Shown here: positions 3,438-17,787 of the stretch, one piece after another
Layout: each line of letters opens with the position of its first letter
Position numbering within the stretch: the first letter of the stretch is position 1
Source: an uncultured Spirochaetaceae bacterium
Lineage (GTDB): Bacteria; Spirochaetota; Spirochaetia; Sphaerochaetales; Sphaerochaetaceae
Length of the DNA: 64,000 bases
Assembly: GCA_900315435.1 (NCBI GenBank)
Contig: OMYY01000008.1
Span: 1 to 64,000, forward strand
Reading direction: 5' to 3'
Notes under the pieces: generated by a model
Seen by the model: only the letters and a program-made list of their open reading frames with translations
Told to the model about the DNA's origin: nothing
Database searches by the model: none
Program-made: the position numbers and the translations under genes

Positions 3438-3439
3438 TG

Positions 3440-3467
3440 TGGCCACACCGACGGTGTGGCCATTTTT
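3440..3467 (+). terminator. Terminator of tRNA-Arg
   Basis: A perfect 10-bp stem, TGGCCACACC/GGTGTGGCCA, with a 3-base loop is followed by TTTTT. It starts 3 bases after the tRNA. On the minus strand the same hairpin lacks a T-run, so transcription of the PGA operon is not obviously stopped before it runs antisense through the tRNA. Confidence 0.9.
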
Positions 3468-3473
3468 GTATTC

Positions 3474-4517
3474 CTATCTCCTTTCCTTTCCCCAGAGCAG
3501 AATTCCCACCGCCAGCAACAAGGTCGCGAGCGGAATCCAAATGGGACCGATCCGGCTCTGATACAGGGGACCGGACGGCTCGGAGGGAAGCGGACTGGGG
3601 TCGAAAGGGATTCCATAACGGGATGCCAGCTTCCGTACCTGCAAGAGATTCACCACGGGAACCCCTTCGGCCAGATAGGCAAAGACAAGCCCCCGGTCGG
3701 CCTGAAGCGGAAGATTCCGCCTCCGGGACACCAGGCCCGGAGCAAGGCCAAGGATTTCCGCGCCCTTGCCCACATTGGGTTCGGCACCCCCGATGTTGAC
3801 GAAACAAGCAATCTTGCCAAGAAGGGCCTTCCGTTTTCGGATGTTGGATTCCAGGTCCTTTTCGTCAAGAACCGGGAATCCGCTTGCGTGGAGCAAAGAA
3901 CGGGAAAGCTGCCCGGTACCGTCATACACGAGCCCCTCGAAGGCACCCTTTCCCTGGTCCCCATCGCCGCCAGGAGATACGGCGACCACTTCGAAATGGA
4001 ACCCATCCTGTCTCAAAAGTGACAGAATCGTCAGGATTGAAAGCTCCGGCCTTGTGGCGCCATACATCGATGCTCCGAGCGAGGCGACCAATCGTACCTC
4101 GAGACCCATCTCTTCAGCGGCACAAAGGACGGCGACCAGATACCCGGGAAACGATCCGCTCGTGCCCACCCCGACCACATCCCCTTTTCGTAAGCCTGCC
4201 TCGGTGAACAACCGGACCATCAAGGCCGCACTGTCCGGACTCAGGGTGGTCCGCTTGACATCCGGATATCCCATCGTGGTGACAAGTGGCGAGAACTCGG
4301 GACCAATCAGGTAGGTCCCTTCCAGATCCTCAGCCTCAAGCCCGATTCCTTGGTTCTCCGCATAGGTTTTGAGAGACTCCCCGGCACGTTGCATCCGATG
4401 GAAACTCTTTTCCATCACCCCCCGTTCAGGCAGGTCTGAGAAGCGCAGGGAGCACAGTCCCGCCACGAGTCCGGCAGCCAGCACCAACAAGGAGAGGACA
4501 GGGTACCGTAGCCGCAC
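3474..4517 (-). CDS. pgsW: Poly-gamma-glutamate system protein PgsW
   Basis: 347 residues, last gene of the PGA operon, starting 1 base after the pgsC stop. There is one N-terminal membrane segment (YPVLSLLVLAAGLVAGL), a long extracytoplasmic domain and a C-terminal membrane segment (about residues 322-342) ending in a basic tail. The domain includes VGVGTSGSFPGYLVAVLCA, VASLGASMYGATRPEL and FVNIGGAEPN. This matches what I recall of the PgsW family found beside pgsB and pgsC in some bacteria, where the usual PgsA/CapA is missing. The biochemical role is not established. Its place suggests a part in polymer export or turnover at the membrane. Confidence 0.75.
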   Translation of the reverse strand: MRLRYPVLSLLVLAAGLVAGLCSLRFSDLPERGVMEKSFHRMQRAGESLKTYAENQGIGLEAEDLEGTYLIGPEFSPLVTTMGYPDVKRTTLSPDSAALMVRLFTEAGLRKGDVVGVGTSGSFPGYLVAVLCAAEEMGLEVRLVASLGASMYGATRPELSILTILSLLRQDGFHFEVVAVSPGGDGDQGKGAFEGLVYDGTGQLSRSLLHASGFPVLDEKDLESNIRKRKALLGKIACFVNIGGAEPNVGKGAEILGLAPGLVSRRRNLPLQADRGLVFAYLAEGVPVVNLLQVRKLASRYGIPFDPSPLPSEPSGPLYQSRIGPIWIPLATLLLAVGILLWGKERR

Positions 4518-4518
4518 G

Positions 4519-4944
4519 CTAGGCCCCCAGGTGCAACAGGATCAAGGCGACCAATGCCAGGGCACAGGTCAGGGAGGCAAGAGAGACCAAGGTCTTCACC
4601 GGCCCCTGCCGGACCATGTCGTTGGCAATCAGGCCGGGAACGACCAGGCCGATGACACGGACGTCCAAGGAGAGCGGCACCACCCCCGGCAGGGCGGAAA
4701 GCACCATGCCGACCAACAGGCACAGGACAAAACGGCGACGGCCATAGACAATCACGAGCTGCGAGAGCCCAAGCACACACAGCCAGGTGACGAACGAGAC
4801 TGCCAGAGTGGCGGCAATTCTTGCTGGCTCGAACAGGTTCATGGATAAATACCCGGCGCTGACCAACCCGCCAGCAAGCAGCCCGGTCAACTCAGTGTAG
4901 AGGCAACCAAGGACGATGCTGAGAGTCAGAAGTATCTGGTTCAT
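4519..4944 (-). CDS. pgsC: Poly-gamma-glutamate biosynthesis membrane protein PgsC
   Basis: 141 residues with four or five membrane helices. It matches PgsC/CapC in length and layout (MNQILLTLSIVLGCLYTELT at the N-terminus, IGLVVPGLIANDMVRQGP near residues 100-117). The start ATG overlaps the pgsB stop as ATGA (4941-4944), so the two are translationally coupled. In Bacillus, PgsC is the membrane partner needed with the PgsB ligase for PGA polymerisation. A longer upstream start would overlap pgsB out of frame and shows no hydrophobic segment. Confidence 0.88.
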   Translation of the reverse strand: MNQILLTLSIVLGCLYTELTGLLAGGLVSAGYLSMNLFEPARIAATLAVSFVTWLCVLGLSQLVIVYGRRRFVLCLLVGMVLSALPGVVPLSLDVRVIGLVVPGLIANDMVRQGPVKTLVSLASLTCALALVALILLHLGA

Positions 4945-5993
4945 AAGGCCTGCTCCTTCAGGAAGGAGAGCAATCGCTGTCCATCCCCCTTGATATTGCC
5001 CGTCAGCACCACCGTCTGGCGGGCGCGCGCCACGATTTCCGGAAACGGGACGCAAAGCGCATGCATGCCATGCGAACGAAAGATCCTCGCGCAGAGCGCC
5101 GGGTGGTCGCCGATGACGAACAGGCTGTCCACCCCCAGCGACTGGAAGCACCCGGCAAAGCGCTCCAGACGGAACTCCCGGTCCCAGCGGTTGGCAAAGA
5201 CGATGGATGTCTCCGACAGATCAAGGGTTGCGAGCAACTGCCGTGTCGTGGTGGTATCGTTGCGTGCGAAGGCATTGATGAAGCGCCTGCCGCAGACCAT
5301 CACATCCCCACCCATCCCGATATCCCCCCGCACGTTGCACATGCCTTTGATGGCGACCTTCTGCGGAATACCGAGCTCCATACAGGCAACGAGCGCAATC
5401 CGGTAGCAATCGGGATGGACCCACGGGGGAATGCAGGACGGAACGGGAACCTGGGGAGCAATCACCGCCCCTGGCAAGGAACCCAGTACCGAATCGGTGG
5501 TAAGGAAACGGCGGACACCTGATGCCAACACGCCCGCTGTCGATTCCCTGCTCTTTCCCATCTGGTCCACATGGTCCACATAGCTGTTGGTGATCAGGGT
5601 CAAGGTCGGTTCCACCAGCTGCCGCTGGAAGACCCGTTGCAGCTCAGGCCTGATGGCAGAGCACTCGCAGACCAAGGCCCGGACACCGAGCACGTTCGCC
5701 AGGCGAGCCAGATGGCGTTGCTCCCGGACCAGATTGACTACGCCTCTGCGGTCTATCCTGCGTGTCGACCCATCGGGAAGCACCAACTCCGCCGCACTTC
5801 CCGTCGAGCGTCCCAGCGCGGGGATTCCCGCCTCGTCCAGGGCTGCGGCCAGCAGACGGACCACCGTCGACTTGCCCCGTGTGCCATTGACCACCACACG
5901 GATGGGAATCCGCAGTAGGGAACGATGCAGGGCAAGGCGCTCGATGGCACCTGCCAGAATCAGGCAGAGCAGCGAAATGAGAGCGACCTTCAT
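4941..5993 (-). CDS. pgsB: Poly-gamma-glutamate synthase PgsB (CapB)
   Basis: 350 residues. An N-terminal membrane helix (ALISLLCLILAGAI) precedes a Mur-ligase-like amide ligase domain. The ATP-binding P-loop NGTRGKST lies at residues 36-43, and VCECSAIRPELQ (about 109-120) and ITNSYVDHVDQMG (about 133-145) are typical CapB motifs. The enzyme activates the gamma-carboxyl of glutamate with ATP and extends the chain at the inner face of the membrane. The length is near that of CapB/PgsB. The gene overlaps the next small gene and pgsC by 4 bases each, which marks a tight operon. Confidence 0.92.
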   Translation of the reverse strand: MKVALISLLCLILAGAIERLALHRSLLRIPIRVVVNGTRGKSTVVRLLAAALDEAGIPALGRSTGSAAELVLPDGSTRRIDRRGVVNLVREQRHLARLANVLGVRALVCECSAIRPELQRVFQRQLVEPTLTLITNSYVDHVDQMGKSRESTAGVLASGVRRFLTTDSVLGSLPGAVIAPQVPVPSCIPPWVHPDCYRIALVACMELGIPQKVAIKGMCNVRGDIGMGGDVMVCGRRFINAFARNDTTTTRQLLATLDLSETSIVFANRWDREFRLERFAGCFQSLGVDSLFVIGDHPALCARIFRSHGMHALCVPFPEIVARARQTVVLTGNIKGDGQRLLSFLKEQAL

Positions 5994-6247
5994 GCAAGGA
6001 CCCGCTCAAGGAAGAGCTGCAACTGCTCGAGCTCGAGTTCGGAAAAGCACTCTCCCCCTTCACTATCCTCACGGCAGGCCTCCACCTTTGCCTGATACGC
6101 GCCATCGCCCAGCCCCAAAAGGCGTGCGGCATCCGGGCAGAGTCCAAGCACCGCAAGCGCGTCGTGCAGGCAGAGCGCCCGCTCCATCCGGCTGTCTGCC
6201 TTGGCGGCGCGGAGCGCAAAATCCTGGGCGATTTCCCGACTCTTCAC
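5990..6247 (-). CDS. Small hypothetical protein in the PGA operon
   Basis: 85 residues, Ala/Glu/Leu-rich and predicted helical, with no signal peptide. The C-terminal half is acidic (SELELEQLQLFLERVLA), possibly a coiled coil. It lies 3 bases after the zinc carboxypeptidase gene and overlaps pgsB by 4 bases, so it is co-translated with the ligase. It occupies the position of small accessory proteins such as PgsE, but no similarity is evident to me. A cytoplasmic role beside PgsB is an inference. Confidence 0.7.
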   Translation of the reverse strand: MKSREIAQDFALRAAKADSRMERALCLHDALAVLGLCPDAARLLGLGDGAYQAKVEACREDSEGGECFSELELEQLQLFLERVLA

Positions 6248-6250
6248 GGC

Positions 6251-8287
6251 TTACTCCTCATCATACATTCCCTCGTAGGAAAGCACATAGTGGACGGTAT
6301 CCAGCTGGTCGTAGACCCTCCGCTCCATGGGAAACCCTCGGAACGTCTCCACGGTGATGGCGGGGATGTCAAGCCGGCCGGAAACCTCGGCATTGACGCT
6401 ACCCTTCGGTCCCGGTCCGGCCGAAGCGAATTCGTTATGGCAGAGCGTTCCTTCCTGGGTGGCGAAGAGCATGTCGAAATAGAGGTCCTCGATGCCATCG
6501 AGCATCGAGAAGATATAGGTGCTCCCCAGAAAATCCCTCGACTGCTTGTAGATGATCGCCTCGTGCAGGTCGAGCAACACATCCGGCCTGACCTCCTGGA
6601 TACGGGAGAAAACCGCATAGGCGGCCCGTTCTGCCACATTTCCCTCTGGATTTCCCGGGAAGGAACGGTTCATGTCCAGCGTTCCCTCCACATACCGGCT
6701 CCGCTTCCGGGCGCCCGTAGCGTTTGCCGGAGCGATGATATACAGGTCTCCGCTCTTGATGGTGACCTTCCTTTGGAGCAACTGGCCTGCATACCAGGCA
6801 GCCCGTTCGTCGCCGTGGATCCCGGCGACGATATAGACGGCCGGACCGGGATTGTCGGAATGGATGTGGTATTCCACCACCTCTTCCGGGGTTCCCTCCA
6901 GCAATTTCCTCGTAGAGACCATCACCGGATAGGAATGGTTGAACTTCCCGTATCCGACATCGCCGTAGTCCATTTCCAGTCCATCCAGCCGGCTTTCCGG
7001 CTCGAGGATCCACGTCCCGTCCCAAGCGACCTTTTCCCCAGCGATATCCAGATACGGGATTGCTTCTTCGGTTTTCTGGGAAACCTCGATGGCTCGCGGG
7101 CTCTCCTGGCGCATCGGATCCTGAAGAACAGGAATCGCGCCCACGGCAGCCCGCTGCCCGTCCGGACCGGCGAGCATCTGGCCGATGCCCCCGTCGACGA
7201 TTTCTTCATAGGATGGGAGCACGCCCAGGCTGATGAAGCCATCATCCCCGTCATACATTTCGGCGAAGCTGGCGATGCAGGTCAGGTGTCTGGCACACCG
7301 CTCGTCGATGCTGATGCCCGCATCGGTATAAGGGACCGTCACCGCGCCATAGGTGGCGGCTCTTGCGTAGAACCTATCCTTGCCGGTAACCACCAGGTCG
7401 GCGTCGATCGCCCCGTGGAGCCGGCCTTGGGAAGCGTTGGCTGTCTCCATCAGCAACGCCAAGGTATCGGTGTAGTCACCCAGTTCCCGGTGGGTCAGCC
7501 CATGCAGGTTGGCAGGAGATTTCTCCACCGTGACCTTCATCTGGTCCTCCACCATCATCAGCGTGACGTTCGCCAGGTCGAGGGCCCGCTCATGGGCGAC
7601 GATCGCGTTGACCGTCGTGTACTCGGGCGATGCCTCGTGCAAATCGACGGTGATGGAAATGTGCTTGTCGCGGATCAGGCTGGTGATGCCATAGGCGACC
7701 TTTTCGGTGAAGGTCCCATCCTCGCGTCCCGGATATGCCCGGTTCAGGTTGCGGGTCTCGCTGCCAGAAAGCTGCTGTCCGCTGGAGGCATGGATATAGA
7801 CCTCGCTGTCCGGCCACTGGTCGATCGGGTTGGTAGCACGGCTGCCATAGCGGAACCAGCGTTTGCCGTAGGGGGTATCGATCTGGTAGCGCATCGGCGA
7901 CGCCTCCTGAGGGTCGGTGCAGGTGAAGGCACTGTTGTTGGCCCGGGGAATGACGTACAGCACTCCCTCGGTCGGCTGACATGACTCGATCAGGGCCACC
8001 GCGGAGAGGAACCCGGAGGGCTCGTTGGGGTGCGTTCCCCCGAGTACCAGCATTCCGGCACCTTCGACCCCGCTGTCCAAGATATAGACCTCCGTATCGC
8101 CATGGGTTCCCTTCAAGGCTGGCATCCAGTCGCTCAGCATGGCTATGCCGGTCACCCCGGGACCGGGGTAGACCGGTTCGGGAACCAAGGCGGAACGAAA
8201 TATCCGCGCAAGGTGCAGGGTCAGCAACAGGACAAGCACGGTCAAGACCGATGCGGAAAGGATATGGCGAGGAATCGGACGACGCAT
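6251..8287 (-). CDS. Membrane-anchored tandem zinc carboxypeptidase/aspartoacylase-like protein
   Basis: 678 residues. An N-terminal anchor helix (about residues 10-28) is followed by two M14/succinylglutamate-desuccinylase-like domains. Domain 1 has GGTHPNEPSG (H86, E89), NLNRAYPG, DLHEAS (H217) and METAN (E281). Domain 2 has AGIHGDERAAW (H491, E494), DMNRSFPG, DLHEA (H575) and a late VETFRGFP. Both domains keep the zinc ligands and the Arg motif, so both may be active. Single-domain relatives remove amide-linked acyl or amino-acid groups. In a PGA operon a gamma-glutamyl hydrolase or amidase outside the inner membrane is the natural inference. It sits between a 49-residue membrane protein and the PgsB-coupled small gene. 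Confidence 0.75.
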   Translation of the reverse strand: MRRPIPRHILSASVLTVLVLLLTLHLARIFRSALVPEPVYPGPGVTGIAMLSDWMPALKGTHGDTEVYILDSGVEGAGMLVLGGTHPNEPSGFLSAVALIESCQPTEGVLYVIPRANNSAFTCTDPQEASPMRYQIDTPYGKRWFRYGSRATNPIDQWPDSEVYIHASSGQQLSGSETRNLNRAYPGREDGTFTEKVAYGITSLIRDKHISITVDLHEASPEYTTVNAIVAHERALDLANVTLMMVEDQMKVTVEKSPANLHGLTHRELGDYTDTLALLMETANASQGRLHGAIDADLVVTGKDRFYARAATYGAVTVPYTDAGISIDERCARHLTCIASFAEMYDGDDGFISLGVLPSYEEIVDGGIGQMLAGPDGQRAAVGAIPVLQDPMRQESPRAIEVSQKTEEAIPYLDIAGEKVAWDGTWILEPESRLDGLEMDYGDVGYGKFNHSYPVMVSTRKLLEGTPEEVVEYHIHSDNPGPAVYIVAGIHGDERAAWYAGQLLQRKVTIKSGDLYIIAPANATGARKRSRYVEGTLDMNRSFPGNPEGNVAERAAYAVFSRIQEVRPDVLLDLHEAIIYKQSRDFLGSTYIFSMLDGIEDLYFDMLFATQEGTLCHNEFASAGPGPKGSVNAEVSGRLDIPAITVETFRGFPMERRVYDQLDTVHYVLSYEGMYDEE

Positions 8288-8294
8288 ACGGACC

Positions 8295-8444
8295 TCACTT
8301 TACCCGAAACAGGCGCAAGAGCAAGGTCACCAGGACCAATGCCGCATCAATCTGGAAAAAGAGGTTGCCCTTCTTGCGGAACATGCAGACGAAGAGAAGC
8401 AACACGACGAAGGCGACAAGCGCAAGATAGATGTGCATCAGCAT
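8295..8444 (-). CDS. Small membrane protein in the PGA operon
   Basis: 49 residues from the ATG at 8444, preceded by GGGAGGG at a 5-base distance. It has two hydrophobic helices (IYLALVAFVVLLLFVCMF and AALVLVTLLLRLF) separated by the basic turn RKKGN. No family is recognised. It lies 11 bases after the TRAP-type permease and 7 bases before the carboxypeptidase. Such a size and place fit a small subunit of the permease or of the polymer export complex, but this is inference. Confidence 0.65.
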   Translation of the reverse strand: MLMHIYLALVAFVVLLLFVCMFRKKGNLFFQIDAALVLVTLLLRLFRVK

Positions 8445-8455
8445 GGCAGCCCTCC

Positions 8456-9733
8456 CTACACCGTCAAGAAACCGAGCGCGGTCGACCAGCGCATGCACAA
8501 CGCCGCCAAGGCGATGCAGACCGCGAAGGGAACGGCGCAATGCTTCAGTACCTTGCGGTACGGAAGCCCTACAATCTGGGCCGCGTAGTTGCCCGCCAAG
8601 GCGGTCGGGGGCATCAAATCCCCCAGACAGCAGACGAACGAGAGCACTGCGGCGATGATGATGTCATTACAGGTGCCGTGGCTGACCATGACCAGGAGGA
8701 AAGGCACCCCGATGACCGAGGCTGCCCCGTAGGAGCTGATTGCCCCGAAAGCCGGCATGATGGTGAAGGCGGCGACATAGACAAAGACGATGCCAAGGGC
8801 CAAGCAACTGACCACAATCCATCCCCTCGAGCCGACCAACGTCAGGATCTGGATGAACATGCCAACTCCCACCAGCTTGGCCAACACCGGAATGGTGGTA
8901 TCCATTGCCTCGAGACACATATTCCAGACGTTGTATTTCCGCCCGGTGAAAAGCCCCACGGCGCTGGCAATCAGGAAAATCAGGCAGGTGCCCAGTTGGG
9001 GGAAGGCAGGCACCAGCTTGCTTGCCACCAGAAGGACCACCAGGACAATGATGGGCAGATACAGGACGAACCCGTAGATCGAACCGACCTCGGTCCGCAA
9101 GCTGCCCTTGAGCTTCTCCACATCAAGATGTCTCGCATAGGGGAGGCCGAGGAACAGGACGGCGAAAATCGCACAAGGAACCGTCAGAAGCAGAAGTGGC
9201 AGTCCGAAGCCGATATAGGGCATATCGACTCCCCCGCCGATGAGCATCGCAGGAATATTGATGGGAGGTGCGGCCATGCCCATGATGGCGCCAATGGCGA
9301 TGATGGCGCCAGCCTTCTCTTTGGGAATTCCCACCAAGAGGAGGATAGGGGCCACCAACGACCCCGAGGAAAGGACCGCCGCGGTCGAGCTCCCGGTAAT
9401 CATTCCGGGAAACATGACCACCAGCATCAGCAATACCAGCATCAAGGCAGGCACCCTGGCGAAGTGGGTGACGATGGCGGCGTTCAGCGCCTCGAGGGCA
9501 CCCGACTTCTGGGTTACCGCCATGAAAAACATGGCGGTGGTGATGATCAGCATGGTATCCACATACGTGAAGGTCCCCTCGTACAGGTGGCGGAGGGGCA
9601 CTCCCTGGCCGCCAGCCAAAGCCCCGGCCACCGCGCCGATGACCATGGAAAGGCTCACCGGCAGCCTCAGGGCGAGATTGGCAAGCAGGAACGAGGCAAG
9701 CATCACCAGCAGGCAGACCAATTCGATATCCAT
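8456..9733 (-). CDS. Orphan TRAP-type large permease (DctM-like) in the PGA operon
   Basis: 425 residues with about a dozen hydrophobic segments. It resembles the DctM/ion-transporter superfamily: SGSLVAPILLLVGIPKEKAGAI and AAPPINIPAMLIGGG near the middle, and GDLMPPTALAGNY near the C-terminus. No DctP binding protein or DctQ subunit lies next to it, unlike the two complete TRAP sets at 46.8-54.1 kb. Its neighbours are an exported protein and the PGA remodelling enzymes. It may take up glutamate or oligomers released from PGA, or act in export. The substrate is not deducible. Confidence 0.75.
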   Translation of the reverse strand: MDIELVCLLVMLASFLLANLALRLPVSLSMVIGAVAGALAGGQGVPLRHLYEGTFTYVDTMLIITTAMFFMAVTQKSGALEALNAAIVTHFARVPALMLVLLMLVVMFPGMITGSSTAAVLSSGSLVAPILLLVGIPKEKAGAIIAIGAIMGMAAPPINIPAMLIGGGVDMPYIGFGLPLLLLTVPCAIFAVLFLGLPYARHLDVEKLKGSLRTEVGSIYGFVLYLPIIVLVVLLVASKLVPAFPQLGTCLIFLIASAVGLFTGRKYNVWNMCLEAMDTTIPVLAKLVGVGMFIQILTLVGSRGWIVVSCLALGIVFVYVAAFTIMPAFGAISSYGAASVIGVPFLLVMVSHGTCNDIIIAAVLSFVCCLGDLMPPTALAGNYAAQIVGLPYRKVLKHCAVPFAVCIALAALCMRWSTALGFLTV

Positions 9734-9755
9734 GCGCTATTCCCCCAGAGATGGT

Positions 9756-10358
9756 TTATTTCAGCAACTTCGTGAAGACGTCGATGGTGTCCCTTGTCGC
9801 GAAGATCAGCGAAATCGGCTTTCCGTTGGCCTTCGCATAATCGGTGAACTTTCCATCGAAGTTGGCGTCCTCCTTGACTACCAGATACCTGGCGACAGGC
9901 AGGACCAGGTCGGCAAGAGAGTCGCTCAAAGCCCCGCGGCGGGTCTCGCCTCCAATATGGACGAAAACCACGGGGATGCCGTCCTGCTGGATACGCGCCA
10001 TCACCTTCCTGGCACGGTCCATCTCGTCAGCCTCGGAAACACCGGCAGCTCCCAAGCCTTTGGTGCTGGCACCGACGGCAACCACCACCGTCTTGGCGCC
10101 TGCAACCTCGCTGTCCGTGGCGGTCGGGTTGTAGGTGAACGGGACTCCGATACGCTTCATCACCGTCTGCAGCATGGCGCCGTCGGTGCTCTGCCCGAAC
10201 GAAGTGACGAAGACCGGCTTCGGGAAAAGGCTCTTGTCGATCGTCCCCACGTTGACGATATGGTTGGTCTTGCTGGTCTGCATCGTGTAGGCGCCGGCAT
10301 GAAGGCTCACCGCGCACACCATCATCATCACTCCAATCACTTTTCTCATAGCACGCAT
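9756..10358 (-). CDS. Exported hypothetical protein of the PGA operon
   Basis: 200 residues from the ATG at 10358, which has AGGAGG 7 bases upstream; the ATG two codons earlier is too close to that site. A signal peptide (MRKVIGVMMMVCAVSLHAGA) leads a single domain with an alternating alpha/beta look: KTVVVAVGASTKGLGAAG and IPVVFVHIGGETRRG. I believe it resembles the uncharacterised DUF6305 group, but I am not sure. The layout recalls a small Rossmann-like periplasmic domain. Its place between the GGT lipoprotein and the orphan TRAP permease makes a binding-protein or accessory role possible. Confidence 0.7.
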   Translation of the reverse strand: MRAMRKVIGVMMMVCAVSLHAGAYTMQTSKTNHIVNVGTIDKSLFPKPVFVTSFGQSTDGAMLQTVMKRIGVPFTYNPTATDSEVAGAKTVVVAVGASTKGLGAAGVSEADEMDRARKVMARIQQDGIPVVFVHIGGETRRGALSDSLADLVLPVARYLVVKEDANFDGKFTDYAKANGKPISLIFATRDTIDVFTKLLK

Positions 10359-10380
10359 ACGCATTCCTCCTTTTGTCGTA

Positions 10381-12255
10381 TCAGTAGGCTGCAGCGCCAT
10401 AGTGGCGGCGGTTGTCACCGACGGCATAATAGACGCCGTCACGCATCTCGGCAGCAGAGACGCTGCCCACATGGGAACTCCACGGCAGGTCGCTGTCCAG
10501 CGTGTTGAACCCCAGGTCCTGCATTCCCTTGATGGTCTCTGGACTATAGCTTCCTTCCAGATATATCTGGTCCTTCGACCCTCCGGCATTCCAGGAACGT
10601 GGTGCGTTGACCGCGCTGGCCACGTCCATGCCGAAATCAATGCAGTTCACGATGGTCTCGTACGTGGCGGAGGCGGTGCACCAGTTGCCCGGAGAGCCGA
10701 CAGCGATTTCCGGCTTGCCATCAGCGTCAGCCACAATCGTGGGACAGATGGTAGAGCAGACACGGATACCCGGCATCAGTACATTGACGCTGCTGGTGGG
10801 ATTGTTGGTCAGGTTGGCCAAGTGGGCGTTGAAGACAAATCCCGTCCCCGGGACCGCCAATGCGGAACCGAAGTTGATGCCGTTGGTGTTGGTCGTGGAG
10901 ACCACGTTTCCCTTGGCATCCATGACGACCATATGGGTGGTACCGCCTTGATCGACCGCCATGCTGGCAAAGGCCTCCTTTCCGGTGCTGGTCAACGTCA
11001 CGTGATGTCTTCCCGCCGGGGCGAGGAGCATCTTCTTGCCCGGCGTGATCAGGCCCGCACGCTGGTCTCCGTACGCTTTGCTGATGATTTCGTCGACAGG
11101 AAGATGGTAGTAATCAGGGTCACCCATGTAGGCCCTGCCATCCTTCTGCCCGAGGATGAACGCTTCCGCCTTGATCTGGGCGGTAACCGGATTGTCGAAG
11201 CCATAGGAGGCGAGGTCGAAGTGCTCGGTGATGTTCAGCGCCTCGAGCAAAGCCGCTCCACCGGTCGAAGGGCCGCCGACCGTATAGACCTTGTGTCCTC
11301 GATAGGTGGTGGAGATCGGTTCCCGCACTACCGAAGCGTAGTTGGCGAAATCGTCATGGGTCACGATACCGCCCTGGCTTTGGATGTAATCGACCATCTT
11401 GTCGGTAAACTCGCTGTCGTAAAAGCCCTTGATTCCTTCACGGGCAATCAGCTCGAGGGTGTCGGCGAGATCGTTGTTGGTGATCACGTCCCCTTCGCTG
11501 TACAAGAAACCCTCATCCGTATAGAGCCCCATCGAATAGGGATAGGCGCTCAGGTTCTCGTAACGCCCTTCGATGTTGGCGTTCCAGCGGTCGGTGACCC
11601 GGAATCCGCCACGGGCAAGAGCGATCACAGGCTCCAGCACCTGGGCAGGAGTCATGGTCCCCCACTTCTCCAGGGCGGTCAACGTGCCATGGACCGTACC
11701 GGGGATGGCAATCGCCTGGACCGAGGGAGGATTGCTTGCAATGGTGGTGTCGGTCTGTCCTGCGACCACAGCGGCCGGTGCCGTCTCCATATATTCGATG
11801 GTCTCGTACGTGTCTTGGTCGGCAAGGTAGACCACCATCTGCCCGCATCCGCCGATGCCACTGGCTGCCGGCTCCAACAGTCCTACCGCGTAGATCATGG
11901 CGACCGCGGCATCCACGGCGTTGCCCCCCTCCTCCAGGATCTGCACCGCAATCTGGCTCGCCAGCGGACTGGCGCTTGCCGCGGCCCCATGCGTGCCGGC
12001 CGCACCGGTACCATACAGGTCGGTGGCAAATGGAAGCGAAGGCCGCATCTGTCCCCGCAACACATCTTCTTGGACTGGAGGTTCGGCCTCCGGCACAGGC
12101 GTCTCAGGCACGTCCTGCGCCGGAACCGTCACTGGCGCTTCGGGCACCGAAACAGCAGGAACGCTTTCCACCGCCGGCGCATCCGCCTTCTTCCCACAAC
12201 TGACGGCAAGCGCGGCGATGGCTGACGCCAGGACAAACATACGTATCCGTTTCAT
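10381..12255 (-). CDS. Lipoprotein gamma-glutamyltransferase (GGT/CapD-like)
   Basis: 624 residues. The signal peptide ends in the lipobox AVSC (Cys20), so the mature protein is lipid-anchored. Residues 21-65 are a Pro/Val/Ala/Glu linker. The GGT fold follows, with GNAVDAAVA (111-119). The autocleavage and nucleophile site GGTTHMVV has Thr439 as the expected first residue of the small subunit, as in TTH of known enzymes. GGPSTGG and VGSPGNW supply oxyanion and substrate-binding motifs. GGT-family enzymes cleave or transfer gamma-glutamyl bonds, and CapD does so on PGA. Here it probably trims, releases or attaches PGA at the cell surface or periplasm. Confidence 0.88.
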   Translation of the reverse strand: MKRIRMFVLASAIAALAVSCGKKADAPAVESVPAVSVPEAPVTVPAQDVPETPVPEAEPPVQEDVLRGQMRPSLPFATDLYGTGAAGTHGAAASASPLASQIAVQILEEGGNAVDAAVAMIYAVGLLEPAASGIGGCGQMVVYLADQDTYETIEYMETAPAAVVAGQTDTTIASNPPSVQAIAIPGTVHGTLTALEKWGTMTPAQVLEPVIALARGGFRVTDRWNANIEGRYENLSAYPYSMGLYTDEGFLYSEGDVITNNDLADTLELIAREGIKGFYDSEFTDKMVDYIQSQGGIVTHDDFANYASVVREPISTTYRGHKVYTVGGPSTGGAALLEALNITEHFDLASYGFDNPVTAQIKAEAFILGQKDGRAYMGDPDYYHLPVDEIISKAYGDQRAGLITPGKKMLLAPAGRHHVTLTSTGKEAFASMAVDQGGTTHMVVMDAKGNVVSTTNTNGINFGSALAVPGTGFVFNAHLANLTNNPTSSVNVLMPGIRVCSTICPTIVADADGKPEIAVGSPGNWCTASATYETIVNCIDFGMDVASAVNAPRSWNAGGSKDQIYLEGSYSPETIKGMQDLGFNTLDSDLPWSSHVGSVSAAEMRDGVYYAVGDNRRHYGAAAY

Positions 12256-12280
12256 CTCACAACCTCATCCGATATATGCA

Positions 12281-12302
12281 CCGCACCCATCGCTGGGTGC
12301 GG
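12281..12302 (-). other. Intercistronic hairpin without U-tract
   Basis: A 9-bp perfect stem, CCGCACCCA/TGGGTGCGG, with a 4-base loop lies between the first lipoprotein gene and ggt. No T-run follows on the minus strand, so it is more likely an mRNA-processing or stability element, or a weak attenuator, than a full terminator. Confidence 0.45.
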
Positions 12303-12321
12303 CACGGCAAGAAGAGAAGCC

Positions 12322-13614
12322 TCAGTCAACCACGGTGACCGACCTCACATCCGAAACCTTGACAGAGGCCAGATCTCCATCGGCCACGGTCCTGGTGCTC
12401 CCGTCAGGGGTGGCAACCTCGAAATCGTTGCCCTGCGTGCCGGAAGCCGAGAGCAGGTCTGCCAGCGAGGCGTCCCCTGCCATGGCGACAAAGGCGACAT
12501 CCCCGGCCACCAGCCTGGACACCCCCATGAGCGCGTCCCCGCTCTCTCCTTTGACCTGATGCTCCTTCAACAGCGCGTAGGAATCGCTCTTCTTCAGATA
12601 GACCAGGCGCCTGTCGGCAATCTCGCCAGCGGCGAAGGTCTCATCCCCTGCCTCGCTGGTGACCGTGACGGTCGTGGGAGCAAGACCATAGCGAGAGGCC
12701 AACGTTCCCAGGACATAGCCCTTGTAGTAGGAACCGGCCACATTTCCGAGATAGGAAGCTTCCTTTCCGTAGACGCCTTTGGCGTTCTGGGCAACCACCA
12801 GGTGGACGATTCCCTCATCTAGCGGCTCAATCGAGGAATGCATCCCTCCGGCGGCGATATCCCGGACATTCTCGACCACCGTCTGGCCGAAGACCGCGTC
12901 GATCTTGTCTGGCGCGCTCTTGACCAGCTTGCCCTCCAGGAAAGCGTTCTCGTCGACAGTCGTCTTGACTCCTTCGATGTCGTAGACGTCATAGCTGTTG
13001 GCGCCGGCGAGATACATGCCCTCGTTCAGGTCGAAGAAACTCTCCACGGCAATTTCGTCAAAAGGAACGAACACCAGCGCCTCAGGGCCATCGACCGTAT
13101 ATACCTTATAGTTGCAGTCATAGGTGGCGCTCTGTCCCTTGCCGGTGAAGACATCAAACTTCTGGCTCGCGTCATCCTTCATGAAGGTGACGTACTTGTC
13201 TGCGAAAAGGCGGCTTGCCCCCGCCGCATAGGGAGCGCTGTCCAGATACGGATCGCCAAGCGTTCCGGTGGAAAAAACCGTATCAGCGTCCGGTTGCCAC
13301 CAGAAGTTGTCCTCGACGATTTCCTGCAAGCTGAAACCTTTCTTCCACTCGCGGGCATTGTAGCACTGGTCGATGGCATCCTGTCCCTGAAGCGCGCTGG
13401 CCATCGGATAGACGGTCTTCGGCCCACCGACTTCCTTCTTCGCGGGAACTTCAGGTGCGGGAGCCGGGGTAGGTGCCGGAAGGGCGGAAATGGTCGGTTG
13501 CGGCGTAGCCTGGACAGGTTGTGGCGCCGGAGTCACGGCTTGTTTTTTCCCGCAACCTGCGAGCAACGCGACAGCGCACAGCGCAAATGTCATATACGGA
13601 TACCTATTTTTCAT
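12322..13614 (-). CDS. Lipoprotein of unknown function, first gene of the PGA operon
   Basis: 430 residues from the ATG at 13614 (AAGGGGGT 7 bases upstream). The signal peptide ends in LLAGC (lipobox), followed by a Pro/Ala/Gln linker of about 40 residues. The rest looks like a mainly beta, secreted domain with short repeats of charged turns (TVDGPEALVFVPFDE, GMYLAGANSYDVYD). No family is recognised. The linker resembles that of the neighbouring GGT lipoprotein, so both probably reach out from the same membrane. As first gene behind the promoter it may bind PGA or anchor the complex, which is inference only. Confidence 0.7.
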   Translation of the reverse strand: MKNRYPYMTFALCAVALLAGCGKKQAVTPAPQPVQATPQPTISALPAPTPAPAPEVPAKKEVGGPKTVYPMASALQGQDAIDQCYNAREWKKGFSLQEIVEDNFWWQPDADTVFSTGTLGDPYLDSAPYAAGASRLFADKYVTFMKDDASQKFDVFTGKGQSATYDCNYKVYTVDGPEALVFVPFDEIAVESFFDLNEGMYLAGANSYDVYDIEGVKTTVDENAFLEGKLVKSAPDKIDAVFGQTVVENVRDIAAGGMHSSIEPLDEGIVHLVVAQNAKGVYGKEASYLGNVAGSYYKGYVLGTLASRYGLAPTTVTVTSEAGDETFAAGEIADRRLVYLKKSDSYALLKEHQVKGESGDALMGVSRLVAGDVAFVAMAGDASLADLLSASGTQGNDFEVATPDGSTRTVADGDLASVKVSDVRSVTVVD

Positions 13615-13849: not shown

Positions 13850-14866
13850 ATGCAAAAACCATTCATCGCAAGTTTCGCGCTTTTCGCTATCGCTTCCATG
13901 GCCTTCGCTCAAGGAACGAGGGAAACCGCCGTCACGGGCGCCACCCGGAAAACCTATGTGGTCGGCATCTCGAAGATGATGAGCCATCCGGCTCTGGACG
14001 CCATCGAGCAGGGCATCATGGACTACCTTGCGACAACCGACCTCTCCATCACCTATGACAGGCAGAACTGCAACGGGGATGTCTCCACCGCCATCTCCAT
14101 CGCCCAGAAGTTCAAAGACTCCAAGTGCGATGCCGTCGTCGGCATCGCCACTCCGCCGGCCCAGGCGCTCGCCACCACCTTCAAGGACATCCCGGTGGTG
14201 TTCAGCGGCGTCACCGACCCGCTCTCCGCCGGACTGATTGCCGATTACGACCACCAGACCGAGACCAATGTCTGCGGCGCCAGCGACAAGAGTCCCCAGA
14301 AGGAACAGCTCGAGATGTTCTTCAAGGCGACCAACATCAAGACGATGGGCATGGTCTATACCGCCAGCGAAGCAAACGGCGTCTACCAGATGGAGGTCGC
14401 CAAGCAGGTCTGCGAGGCCAACGGCATCACCTTCGTCGGCGCCGCGGTGCAGAACAGCAGCGAGGTGAAGATGGCCGCCCAGTCGATCATCGACCGTGTC
14501 GACGGCATGTATGTCGCCATCGACAACACGGTGGTCAGCGCCATCGCCAGCGTCGACGACGTCTGCTACCAGGCCAAGAAGCCGTTGTTCAACTCCGACA
14601 CCACCAGCAGCGAGGGGACCCGGTTCTTCATGAGTTCCTCTTTCAACTACTACAACCATGGATATGAGTCAGGCAAAATCGTCGAGAGAGTGCTGCGTGG
14701 CGAAAACCCGAAGGACATCGGCGCCATCTTCTTCACCGACATGAAGCTGATGGACCTGATCTTCAACCTGGACAGCGCCAGCTACCTTGGCATCGAGATT
14801 CCCGCAGACCTCCTGGCCCAAGCCAACTATGTGGTCAAGGATGGCAAGACGCAAGCGAACCGCTGA
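13850..14866 (+). CDS. ABC transporter substrate-binding protein, TrpX-like (paralog 1)
   Basis: 338 residues. A signal peptide (MQKPFIASFALFAIASMAFA) is followed by QGTRET. The mature part is a two-lobed periplasmic binding protein of the ABC_sub_bind family: VGISKMMSHPALDAIEQG, VGIATPPAQALA, PVVFSGVTDPLSAGL, and VAIDNTVVSAIASV in the hinge/second lobe. Family members bind aromatic amino acids or related small molecules. It is followed by a paralog sharing the same motifs, then one permease and one ATPase, so two binding proteins probably feed one importer. Translation is led by a good promoter and ribosome site. Confidence 0.85.
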   Translation: MQKPFIASFALFAIASMAFAQGTRETAVTGATRKTYVVGISKMMSHPALDAIEQGIMDYLATTDLSITYDRQNCNGDVSTAISIAQKFKDSKCDAVVGIATPPAQALATTFKDIPVVFSGVTDPLSAGLIADYDHQTETNVCGASDKSPQKEQLEMFFKATNIKTMGMVYTASEANGVYQMEVAKQVCEANGITFVGAAVQNSSEVKMAAQSIIDRVDGMYVAIDNTVVSAIASVDDVCYQAKKPLFNSDTTSSEGTRFFMSSSFNYYNHGYESGKIVERVLRGENPKDIGAIFFTDMKLMDLIFNLDSASYLGIEIPADLLAQANYVVKDGKTQANR

Positions 14867-15003
14867 CCTGGACAAGGCTTCTTTCCGGACGTATATGCAT
14901 GACTACTGGATTTTTATTCATAGTTTTGTATACACGCCCGGTTTCTTTGTGCTATACTTCGCTCAATATTGTTGTTGTCAGACACAATGGAGGCATTCGA
15001 ATC

Positions 15004-16011
15004 ATGAAAAAACAGTTGCTTGCGTGTGCGATGGCGCTTCTCGCCTCGCTTCCGCTTATCGCTGGCGGCCAGAGCGAGAAAACCGCCCAGCAGAGTTCCG
15101 GGGAAAAAGTCTACAAGATCGGCGTATCCAAGTTGCTGCCCCATCCGGCGCTCGACAAAGTCGAGCAGGGTCTGCAGGATTACCTTGCCACGACCGACCT
15201 GAAGGTCTCCTTTGACCTGCAGAACGCGAACGGCGACATCTCCACGGTCAATTCCATCACCCAGAAGTTCAAGAGCGACAAGGACGACCTGGTGGTCGGC
15301 ATCGCCACCCCGAGCGCCCAGTCGCTTGCCAACACCTTCAGCGACATCCCGGTTGTCTACTCTGCCGTCACCGACCCCAACCAGGCGGGACTCGACACCG
15401 GCCTGGTCTGCGGCGTTTCCGACATGAACTCGGTCGAAAGCCAGATCCAGTTGCTTGTCAAGGTGACCAAAGCGCAGGCGATCGGCAACATCTACTGCTC
15501 CAGCGAGGCCAACGGTGTCGTGCAGATGGAGCAGGCGAAGGCCGCCTGCGAGAAGCTTGGCGTGACCTTCGTCGGTGTGGCGGTCAACAATACCAGCGAG
15601 GTCAAGATGGCAGTCCAGTCGATCATCGATCGTGTCGACGCCATCTATATCGCCACCGACAATGCCGTCATCAGCGCATTCCCGGCCGTCGACGAGGTCT
15701 GCGACAAGGCCAAGAAGGGACTCTTCACCAGCGACCCGTCCGTTGCCCCGGATTCGCATTTCCTGATTGCCTGGGGTTGCGACTACTATGCCATCGGCAT
15801 CAGCACCGGCAAGGTGATCGAGCAGTGCCTGAAGGGAACCGATCCCCGCACCATCGGTGACAACGGCGCGGTCTACATGACCAACACCAGCGACATCGAG
15901 CTGTGGCTCAACCTGGACCAGGCGAAGAAGCTTGGCTACACTTTCAGCGACGACGTGCTCAAGGATGCCGCTGTCCTCATCCAGGATGGCAAGCAAGTAT
16001 CCAAGAAATAA
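15004..16011 (+). CDS. ABC transporter substrate-binding protein, TrpX-like (paralog 2)
   Basis: 335 residues from the ATG at 15004 (GGAGG upstream). The signal peptide MKKQLLACAMALLASLPLIA is followed by GGQSEK. It shares the domain plan and many motifs with the preceding gene (IGVSKLLPHPALDKVEQG, VGIATPSAQSLA, TDNAVISAFPAVDEVCD) but differs through the ligand region. It is therefore a tandem duplicate that has diverged, possibly in specificity. The 137-base gap before it holds a possible TATACT -10, so it may have its own promoter. A terminator-like hairpin separates it from the permease. Confidence 0.85.
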   Translation: MKKQLLACAMALLASLPLIAGGQSEKTAQQSSGEKVYKIGVSKLLPHPALDKVEQGLQDYLATTDLKVSFDLQNANGDISTVNSITQKFKSDKDDLVVGIATPSAQSLANTFSDIPVVYSAVTDPNQAGLDTGLVCGVSDMNSVESQIQLLVKVTKAQAIGNIYCSSEANGVVQMEQAKAACEKLGVTFVGVAVNNTSEVKMAVQSIIDRVDAIYIATDNAVISAFPAVDEVCDKAKKGLFTSDPSVAPDSHFLIAWGCDYYAIGISTGKVIEQCLKGTDPRTIGDNGAVYMTNTSDIELWLNLDQAKKLGYTFSDDVLKDAAVLIQDGKQVSKK

Positions 16012-16030
16012 GCGGAACATGCTACACTGT

Positions 16031-16059
16031 GCCGTCGGGCGATACCGACGGCATTTTTC
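16031..16059 (+). terminator. Attenuator/terminator after the second binding-protein gene
   Basis: TGCCGTCGG (16031-16039) pairs with CCGACGGCA (16046-16054), followed by TTTTT. It lies between the binding-protein gene and the permease. Partial readthrough would give more binding protein than membrane parts. Confidence 0.85.
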
Positions 16060-16070
16060 ATGAGGTACAT

Positions 16071-17006
16071 ATGGTAGAAGGTATTTTTGTCGATGGGCTC
16101 ATTTTCGGAGTCATGGTGCTGGGAATCCTCATCTCGTTCCGCATCATGGACATGGCTGACCTGACCTGCGACGGCAGTGTCGCCACGGGAGCCGCCATCT
16201 GCGCGGTCTGCATCACCAAGGGCATGCCCATCATCGTCGCTATGTTGCTCGCCTTCGTCGGCGGCGCGCTCTGCGGTCTGGTAACCGCGGAGATCCACAA
16301 CCGGCTGCACATTCCAGGCCTGCTCGCGAGCATCCTCACCATGACGATGCTCTATTCGATCAACCTGCGTGTCCTAGGAAACAAGGCCAACCTGCCGCTG
16401 CTTCGCATCAACACGCTCTACACCTACCTGCCCAAATGGTTTGGTTTCCTGCCCGGCGAGTACGCCTCGCTGCTCGGCACCATCATGCTGGTGCTGCTGA
16501 TCAAGGGGCTGTTCGACCTCTTCTTCCGCACCGACCTCGGCATAGCCATCGGGGCGATGGGAAGCAACGAGCAGATGGTCATCAGCCAAGGCATGAATCC
16601 CGCCCTGCTGAAGGACATCGGCTTCTGTCTGTCCAACGGCCTGATCGGCCTTTCCGGCGCCATGCTGGCCCAGTACCAGGGCTTCGCCGACGCGAACCTC
16701 GGCCAAGGCATGGTCGTCCAGGGACTGGCCGGCATCATGCTTGGCGAGTTCCTCTTCTCCAGCAACCGCATCGGACTGATCACCCTGCGTGCCCTGCTGG
16801 GTGGAATCATCTACAAGGCGCTGATGTTCTTTGGCCGCAAGTACGGCTATCTGATCCACATCACGCCGAACGACTTCAAGCTGTTGACCGGAATCCTCGT
16901 CATCGCCAGCCTCTACGTGGCTGAAATGCGGAGCCGTGCCTCCCAGAATGGAGCCAAGAAGAAAGCGCTCGAGCGCCAGGCGAAGAAGGAGGCAGACAAT
17001 GCTTGA
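16071..17006 (+). CDS. ABC transporter permease, branched-chain/TrpY-like
   Basis: 311 residues from the ATG at 16071 (GAGGT 5 bases upstream). It has about eight membrane helices of the BPD_transp_2 type (MDMADLTCDGSVATGAA in loop 1, GLSGAMLAQYQGFADANLGQG near the middle, AGIMLGEFLF). The C-terminal tail is basic and Ala/Lys-rich. It is the single membrane subunit of the importer, presumably a homodimer. It overlaps the ATPase gene by 8 bases. Confidence 0.87.
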   Translation: MVEGIFVDGLIFGVMVLGILISFRIMDMADLTCDGSVATGAAICAVCITKGMPIIVAMLLAFVGGALCGLVTAEIHNRLHIPGLLASILTMTMLYSINLRVLGNKANLPLLRINTLYTYLPKWFGFLPGEYASLLGTIMLVLLIKGLFDLFFRTDLGIAIGAMGSNEQMVISQGMNPALLKDIGFCLSNGLIGLSGAMLAQYQGFADANLGQGMVVQGLAGIMLGEFLFSSNRIGLITLRALLGGIIYKALMFFGRKYGYLIHITPNDFKLLTGILVIASLYVAEMRSRASQNGAKKKALERQAKKEADNA

Positions 17007-17787
17007 GATCAAGCACATCACCAAGGTGTTCTACCCGGGCACGGTCAACGAGAAGACCGCCCTGGAGAACGTGAGCCTGACAGTCAACGATGGCGACGTC
17101 ATCTGTGTCATCGGCTCCAACGGAAGCGGGAAGAGCACGCTGTTCAACCTGATCAGCGGCACCTACCCGGTGACCAGCGGCGAGATTCTCCTGAACGGCA
17201 GGAACATCACCCACATGCCCGAGTACCGCAGGGCCTTCACCATCGGCCGTATCTTCCAGGACCCGACCAAGGGCACGGCGGCAAGCATGTCGATCGCGGA
17301 CAACATGATCACTGCCTCGACCAAAGGCATGAAAGGACTCCGTCGGAGCCTGAACAAGGCGAAGAAGGAGGAGTTCGCCAAACTGCTCGAGCCAATCGGG
17401 CTCTCCAAGCGGCTGGAGGACAACGTCGGACTGCTTTCCGGCGGACAGAGACAGGCGCTGACACTGCTGATGACGGTCATGAGCAAGCCGCAGCTGGTCC
17501 TGCTCGACGAGCACACTGCGGCCCTTGACCCGCGCAACGCCCAGATCGTCATGGACCTGACCACCCAGTACATCAACCAGTACAACCTGACCGCACTGAT
17601 GGTCACCCACAACATGGAGTTCGCCATCAACTACGGCAACCGTCTGATCATGATGGATGGCGGACAGATTGTGCTGGACATCCACGGCGAGGAGAAGAAG
17701 CGGCTGACTGTCTCCAAGCTGGTCAAGCTCTTCAGGACCGTACGCAACAAGGAGTATGACGACGACGAAGGGTTGCTCACCAAGTGA
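16999..17787 (+). CDS. ABC transporter ATP-binding protein, TrpZ-like
   Basis: 262 residues. Walker A GSNGSGKST (about residues 39-47), signature LSGGQRQAL, Walker B LVLLDEH and the switch His in VTHN are all present. It powers the importer formed with the upstream permease. The start inside the permease gene (8-base overlap) implies translational coupling. It is the last gene of the operon and is followed by a strong terminator. Confidence 0.9.
   Translation: MLEIKHITKVFYPGTVNEKTALENVSLTVNDGDVICVIGSNGSGKSTLFNLISGTYPVTSGEILLNGRNITHMPEYRRAFTIGRIFQDPTKGTAASMSIADNMITASTKGMKGLRRSLNKAKKEEFAKLLEPIGLSKRLEDNVGLLSGGQRQALTLLMTVMSKPQLVLLDEHTAALDPRNAQIVMDLTTQYINQYNLTALMVTHNMEFAINYGNRLIMMDGGQIVLDIHGEEKKRLTVSKLVKLFRTVRNKEYDDDEGLLTK

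What the first reader, a model, noticed from the sequence alone, without database searches (positions are those of the whole stretch)
3474..13614. A ten-gene PGA operon that joins synthesis with secreted gamma-glutamyl processing and a lone permease
The sequence shows PgsB, PgsC and PgsW in tight linkage with a lipoprotein GGT, a double zinc carboxypeptidase, a TRAP-type permease, an exported protein, a new lipoprotein and two small proteins. PgsA/CapA is absent. Known PGA systems are best described in Gram-positive bacteria with PgsBCA(E) or CapBCAD. A set with several periplasmic or outer-surface remodelling parts suggests a separate architecture for diderms, in which PGA may be made, trimmed and partly recovered.
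Basis: partly seen in the sequence, partly recalled or inferred. Interest (0 to 1): 0.8.

Follow-up and report, generated by a model that had tools for sequence, protein, structure and literature searches.

The report
Polyglutamate synthesis-and-processing gene cassette
A spirochaete operon joins genes for making a polyglutamate-type polymer with secreted enzymes and a membrane permease that probably trim the polymer and take the pieces back, and the same undescribed gene set is inherited together in many unrelated bacteria.

Summary
The ten-gene operon is real. On the minus strand (13614 to 3474) it reads lipoprotein, GGT lipoprotein, DUF6305, DctM-like permease, a 49-aa two-helix protein, a 678-aa double AstE/AspA-type zinc enzyme, an 85-aa protein, PgsB, PgsC, PgsW (TIGR04332). 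No PgsA lies nearby. The core (GGT, DUF6305, DctM, 49-aa protein, zinc enzyme) is a conserved cassette found in Spirochaetota, Fusobacteriota, Bacillota, Bipolaricaulota and others. Where the cassette occurs, PgsBCW is in the same genome: 15/15 cassette spirochaetes, 16/17 Fusobacteriota (the 17th is cut at a contig edge inside pgsC), and 40 of 43 genomes in which the two are not detectably adjacent. The cassette's DctM clade was absent from all genomes tested that have only PgsW or only DUF6305. The 'diderm architecture' claim fails, because Clostridium has the same order. The 85-aa protein and first lipoprotein are lineage-restricted; the double enzyme is a fusion of two genes. Best reading: a gamma-glutamyl polymer is made by PgsBCW, trimmed outside the membrane by GGT and the zinc enzyme, and its products recovered through a DUF6305-DctM-mini-subunit transporter. 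The association is shown; substrate and direction of flow are inferred. New variant of a known kind.

The parts
12322..13614 (-). lipoprotein (lipobox LLAGC), no known family; lineage-restricted
   Evidence: sequence; no Pfam hit; homologues E<1e-130 upstream of ggt in ten relatives' loci plus one truncated copy
10381..12255 (-). gamma-glutamyltranspeptidase, lipoprotein (lipobox AVSC), nucleophile T439
   Evidence: PF01019 E 2.6e-124; solved GGT small chains start at residue 439; present in 72 of 80 loci
9756..10358 (-). DUF6305 exported protein, probable solute-binding or sensor protein
   Evidence: PF19823; AlphaFold pLDDT 93.9, Rossmann/flavodoxin-like; invariant K97, H131, R137, R138; GGAGG before ATG 10358
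8456..9733 (-). DctM-like permease of a cassette-specific clade
   Evidence: PF06808; 40-74% identical to cassette relatives in other phyla; clade confined to cassette genomes
8295..8444 (-). 49-aa protein with two hydrophobic helices, unannotated family, between dctM and the zinc enzyme
   Evidence: alignment; in 76 of 80 loci, median gaps of 10 bases on both sides
6251..8287 (-). membrane-anchored double AstE/AspA-type zinc amidohydrolase, a fusion of M14a and M14b; both halves keep HxxE and DLHE
   Evidence: separate tandem genes in relatives such as L052-L056
5990..6247 (-). 85-aa protein, lineage-restricted; follows M14b in close relatives
   Evidence: no family hit
4941..5993 (-). PgsB, Mur-ligase-like gamma-glutamyl ligase
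   Evidence: TIGR04012 E 5e-52, below cut-off; conserved ATP loop and acidic residues
4519..4944 (-). PgsC membrane subunit
   Evidence: PF14102 E 4e-29
3474..4517 (-). PgsW (TIGR04332): N- and C-terminal membrane helices around an alpha/beta domain
   Evidence: TIGR04332 E 3e-79; AlphaFold pLDDT 92.0
3439..3463 (.). terminator-like hairpin between pgsW and the convergent tRNA-Arg; the T-run found by the scan serves the + strand

Best explanation
The operon encodes one system for making, trimming and recovering a gamma-glutamyl polymer. Step 1 (inferred from family): PgsB and PgsC join glutamate by ATP-driven gamma-amide bonds at the inner membrane, and PgsW takes the accessory place that PgsA holds in Bacillus. 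Step 2 (location shown, substrate inferred): the surface GGT lipoprotein removes or transfers gamma-glutamyl units, and the membrane-anchored AstE/AspA-type zinc enzyme cuts the chain or its short products. Step 3 (inferred): DUF6305 binds a released carboxylate product outside the membrane, and the DctM permease with its 49-aa partner brings it back in. In this transporter DUF6305 takes the place of the TRAP binding protein and the 49-aa protein the place of DctQ. What is shown is that these parts form one tightly packed gene run and are inherited as a unit with PgsBCW.
For: Recurrent order GGT-DUF6305-DctM-49aa-M14-(M14b)-pgsB-pgsC-pgsW across phyla, with very short gaps. Genome-level co-occurrence: Spirochaetota 15 both, 9 PgsW only, 0 cassette only, 369 neither of 393; Fusobacteriota 16 both, 1 apparent exception cut at a contig edge inside pgsC, 81 neither of 98; Fisher p 3e-21 and 2e-17, not corrected for kinship. 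Inside two genera of the own family the pair is present in 4 and absent in 13 together. 40 of 43 genomes with no PgsW beside the cassette on the contig carry PgsW elsewhere. The cassette DctM clade is absent from all 9 PgsW-only and all 9 DUF6305-only genomes. Zinc enzymes carry N-terminal membrane or signal segments; GGT and DUF6305 are lipoproteins in Clostridium, and DUF6305 is a signal-peptide protein in Fusobacteria, as is usual for binding proteins. GGT and a carboxypeptidase-like zinc enzyme (PghP) are known PGA hydrolases (PMC4497714).
Against: No PGA is shown in any host here. In Francisella a capBCA locus whose CapA is annotated with the TIGR04332 product name was found not to be needed for capsule (PMC4688374; PMC5362203). 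PgsBCW occurs without the cassette in other spirochaete classes, so synthesis does not need it. DUF6305 also lives in a clostridial sensor context without PgsW. DUF6305 has no close fold match that would prove it a binding protein. Three genomes have cassette genes but no PgsW or CapC hit.
Confidence: 0.55

Rival explanations
1. Surface remodelling rather than recycling: GGT acts like CapD and links or releases the polymer at the envelope, the zinc enzymes set chain length, and DctM-49aa moves an ion or a small carboxylate that supports export.
For: GGT-family CapD lies in the Bacillus anthracis cap operon and anchors PGA (PMC4497714; PMC4928254). GGT is a lipoprotein here, and synthesis and processing genes share an operon.
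Against: GGT here is closer to ordinary GGTs (E. coli and relatives, 1e-73) than to CapD (5e-34). Known DctM-type permeases import (general knowledge).
Confidence: 0.22
2. Scavenging: GGT, zinc enzyme, DUF6305 and DctM mainly take gamma-glutamyl peptides (glutathione, other bacteria's PGA) from outside, and PgsBCW is a partner for storing or protecting the nitrogen gained.
For: Hosts found include anaerobes such as Fusobacterium, Treponema and Clostridium; three genomes have cassette genes with no pgs hit; a related DUF6305 sits with peptide-binding proteins and a two-component system.
Against: Near-strict dependence on PgsBCW would be odd for a general scavenging system.
Confidence: 0.13
3. 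PgsBCW makes something other than PGA (a short gamma-glutamyl-capped envelope compound), and the zinc enzymes and GGT mature that compound.
For: Francisella capBCA appears not to serve capsule production; PgsB scores below the NCBIfam PGA synthase cut-off.
Against: PgsB keeps the residues conserved across 57 relatives; Fusobacterium nucleatum is reported to make PGA (Candela 2009, cited in PMC3815933), though its locus was not identified here.
Confidence: 0.1

Closest known systems
PgsBCA(E) of Bacillus subtilis and CapBCAD(E) of Bacillus anthracis
   Same: PgsB and PgsC homologues in adjacent genes; a GGT-family gene in the operon as with CapD
   Different: PgsW in place of PgsA; DUF6305, DctM, 49-aa protein and AstE/AspA-type zinc enzyme in the same operon; GGT closer to ordinary GGT than to CapD
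NCBIfam TIGR04332 poly-gamma-glutamate system (PgsW); capBCA of Francisella, whose CapA carries this product name
   Same: PgsB-PgsC-PgsW triad
   Different: Other spirochaete classes with PgsBCW lack the cassette; Francisella was known only from papers and not compared by sequence
TRAP transporters (DctP-DctQ-DctM)
   Same: DctM-family large subunit (PF06808); an exported protein and a small membrane protein encoded beside it
   Different: No DctP and no DctQ; DUF6305 and a 49-aa two-helix protein stand in their place
PghP-type gamma-PGA hydrolases and AstE/AspA/DoeB amidohydrolases
   Same: Carboxypeptidase-like zinc enzymes; HxxE and DLHE motifs kept in both halves
   Different: Membrane-anchored, fused double domain, substrate unknown

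Membership tests
PgsBCA / CapBCA PGA synthase | PgsB Mur-ligase-like ligase with ATP-binding loop | tested here: met
   TIGR04012 E 5e-52 though below the equivalog cut-off; NGTRGK and other conserved residues kept
PgsBCA / CapBCA PGA synthase | PgsC/CapC membrane subunit | tested here: met
   PF14102 101.8 bits against cut-off 27
PgsBCA / CapBCA PGA synthase | PgsA/CapA (PF09587) encoded with PgsBC | tested here: not met
   No PGA_cap in the locus; only a distant hit on another contig; 17 of 31 cassette genomes have no PGA_cap hit at all
PgsBCA / CapBCA PGA synthase | Production of gamma-linked polyglutamate | not testable with these tools
   Needs chemistry on cells
TIGR04332 PGA-system (PgsBCW) type | PgsW above cut-off, next to PgsBC | tested here: met
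   266 bits against cut-off 100; pgsC-pgsW adjacent in the window and in all 23 other spirochaete loci, pgsB in all but two that end at a contig edge
TRAP transporter | DctM large subunit | tested here: met
   PF06808 E 5e-14
TRAP transporter | DctP-type binding protein in the operon | tested here: not met
   No DctP hit among the ten proteins; DUF6305 instead
TRAP transporter | DctQ small subunit | tested here: not met
   Only a 49-aa two-helix protein with no family hit
Gamma-glutamyltranspeptidase (PF01019) | N-terminal nucleophile threonine at the subunit cleavage site | tested here: met
   T439 aligns with the first residue of solved GGT small chains
AstE/AspA amidohydrolase | Zinc ligands HxxE plus distal H | tested here: met
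   HPNE with DLHE in half one, HGDE with DLHE in half two (sequence printed)

The most novel reading that the evidence does not exclude
A dedicated gamma-glutamyl polymer make-trim-recover system, spread over several bacterial phyla, that contains a new kind of secondary transporter: a DctM-type permease working with a single-domain Rossmann-like binding protein (DUF6305) and a 49-aa membrane partner instead of DctP and DctQ, with the polymer-maker subunit PgsW replacing PgsA.
Probability: 0.35. Interest if true: 0.78.

Novelty: new variant of a known kind. Interest (0 to 1): 0.6.

Why it matters
PGA systems are described mainly from Bacillus, where synthesis is PgsBCA and hydrolysis genes are often unlinked. 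Here a five-part extracytoplasmic cassette is inherited almost as a unit with a PgsBCW synthase across Spirochaetota, Fusobacteriota, Bacillota, Bipolaricaulota and others, including Treponema vincentii and Fusobacterium. It gives a likely context to DUF6305, which no paper in the searched library mentions, to a small protein that matched no Pfam or NCBIfam model, and to PgsW. It also makes the question of what PgsBCW does outside Bacillus testable in cultured strains such as Clostridium tetanomorphum and Fusobacterium gastrosuis.

Tried and rejected
Diderm-only architecture: rejected, same order in Clostridium. DUF6305 as a strict PGA marker: rejected; 9 of 226 genomes of a clostridial class have it in an SBP-DUF6305-kinase-regulator locus with no PgsW, but these form a clade of their own (10/10, support 1.0). 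The adjacent ABC_sub_bind ABC transporter at 13850-17787 as part of the system: found in only 3 of 104 loci, counting the window, left out. DctM relatives among solved structures: no hit. Fold matches for PgsW and DUF6305: only generic Rossmann-like matches, VIA-align Z at most about 8, so no function drawn from them; no calcineurin-like PgsA fold appeared among the listed PgsW matches. Homology of PgsW and DUF6305: hhalign probability 27 percent, not claimed. Promoter scan: no better than shuffles. Whether F. nucleatum itself carries the cassette was not established; Candela 2009 was not read directly.

Full report
Observation. The stated interval holds ten co-oriented genes on the minus strand. 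From the first to the last: a lipoprotein (13614-12322), a GGT with a lipobox (12255-10381), an exported DUF6305 protein (10358-9756), a DctM-family permease (9733-8456), a 49-aa two-helix protein (8444-8295), a 678-aa membrane-anchored double zinc enzyme (8287-6251), an 85-aa protein (6247-5990), PgsB (5993-4941), PgsC (4944-4519) and PgsW (4517-3474). Gaps are 66 bases or less and three junctions overlap or nearly touch, so one transcript is likely but not shown. PgsB is under its NCBIfam cut-off but keeps the residues conserved in 57 relatives.

PgsA. No PgsA/CapA is in the locus. The genome has one distant PGA_cap match on another contig. Of 31 cassette genomes, 17 have no match, and none of the matches lies beside pgsBCW; the nearest is a weak one about 15 kb away in G440. 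PgsW (TIGR04332) takes the third place. Its AlphaFold model is an alpha/beta domain between an N-terminal and a C-terminal membrane helix with no clear solved relative.

Do the unknown genes travel with pgsBCW? In 393 spirochaete genomes PgsW is in 24 and strong DUF6305 in 15; all 15 have PgsW. The nine PgsW-only genomes belong to other classes. In two genera of the own family the pair is present in 4 genomes and absent in 13, always together, so the link is not only shared ancestry. In 98 Fusobacteriota genomes PgsW is in 16 and DUF6305 in 17; the one exception is a contig that ends inside pgsC. A scan of GTDB genomes with DUF6305 gave 253 loci, of which 80 were kept, in Spirochaetota, Bacillota, Fusobacteriota, Bipolaricaulota, and MAGs labelled Atribacteria, Ignavibacteriales, Vicinamibacterales, Thermotoga and Actinomycetota. 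Of these loci 78 have the DctM, 76 the 49-aa protein, 76 the zinc enzyme and 72 the GGT. About half have pgsBCW beside them; of 43 genomes searched because no PgsW lay on the locus, 40 carry PgsW (38 over the cut-off, two as partial matches).

Specificity. A profile of the cassette DctM was run on 80 chosen genomes. It hit every cassette genome tested except G425, and none of 9 genomes with PgsW but no DUF6305, none of 9 with DUF6305 but no PgsW, and none of the remaining spirochaete and Fusobacteriota genomes without PgsW. So the permease is a distinct clade confined to this system.

(a) Not diderm-specific: Clostridium tetanomorphum and C. pascui have the same order. (b) The double enzyme is a fusion of M14a (about 377 aa) and M14b (about 300 aa), which are tandem genes in relatives; both halves keep zinc motifs. 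(c) The first lipoprotein and the 85-aa protein are conserved only in the window's relatives (Sphaerochaetaceae-like, inferred from closest matches) and a few rumen Clostridiales. (d) Many relatives hold two DctM-49aa-M14 units from two DctM clades; the window keeps one.

DUF6305. It is exported, with a lipobox in Clostridium and a signal peptide in Fusobacteria. Its model (pLDDT 93.9) is a Rossmann/flavodoxin-like single domain with invariant K97, H131, R137, R138, D143 and D165. In a separate clostridial clade it sits between a peptide-type binding protein and a membrane histidine kinase with a response regulator. The same kinase and regulator family flanks the PGA cassette in more than twenty Bacillota and Fusobacteria loci. 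This fits an extracytoplasmic ligand-binding protein that works with a permease, a sensor kinase or both; it is an inference.

Mechanism. PgsBC, with PgsW, make a gamma-glutamyl polymer; GGT and the zinc enzyme process it outside the inner membrane; DUF6305-DctM-49aa recover products. Known precedents are GGT exo-hydrolysis of PGA, CapD anchoring, and the carboxypeptidase-like zinc hydrolase PghP (PMC4497714; PMC4928254). The main caution is that the Francisella capBCA locus, whose CapA carries the TIGR04332 product name (PMC5362203), appears not to be needed for capsule (PMC4688374), so PGA as product is not certain. Fusobacterium nucleatum is reported to make PGA (cited in PMC3815933), but its own locus could not be identified here.

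Literature. No paper in the searched library mentions DUF6305, PgsW was found only as an unrelated abbreviation, and no paper describing this gene set turned up. The library lacks most subscription papers.

Verdict. It is a new variant of the PGA synthesis systems, with an unproven but testable make-trim-recover role.

Noticed in passing
L160-L169 (clostridial genomes G553, G585, G587, G612, G640, G663, G686, G730, G751): A separate DUF6305 clade lies between an SBP_bac_5 protein and a membrane histidine kinase plus response regulator, without pgs genes: a possible sensory system.
   Followed up: partly
L067, L070, L072, L082, L087, L092, L093, L094, L125, L126 and others: The same kinase and response-regulator family flanks the PGA cassette in more than twenty Bacillota and Fusobacteria loci, but only one spirochaete locus (L126) has a strong pair.
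   Followed up: partly
window 13850-17787; L125 16472-19241; L105 5988-8600: An ABC_sub_bind (PF04392) ABC transporter lies next to the cassette in the window and in two other loci; 3 of 104 loci, so probably chance.
   Followed up: yes
G463:C1:467282-469070: In one Fusobacteriota genome DUF6305 has stops and dctM is split into two frames: decay or sequencing error.
   Followed up: no
G397, G398, G399, G400, G401, G404: Several MAGs carry two PgsW genes, in G399 side by side.
   Followed up: no
G419, G425, G430: Genomes fetched for cassette DUF6305 with no PgsW or CapC match; may be incomplete MAGs or real cassette-only cases.
   Followed up: partly
L049-L073 and L065-L070: Two old DctM paralogue clades, each with its own 49-aa protein and zinc enzyme, sit on either side of DUF6305; the window has lost or never had the first unit.
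   Followed up: partly
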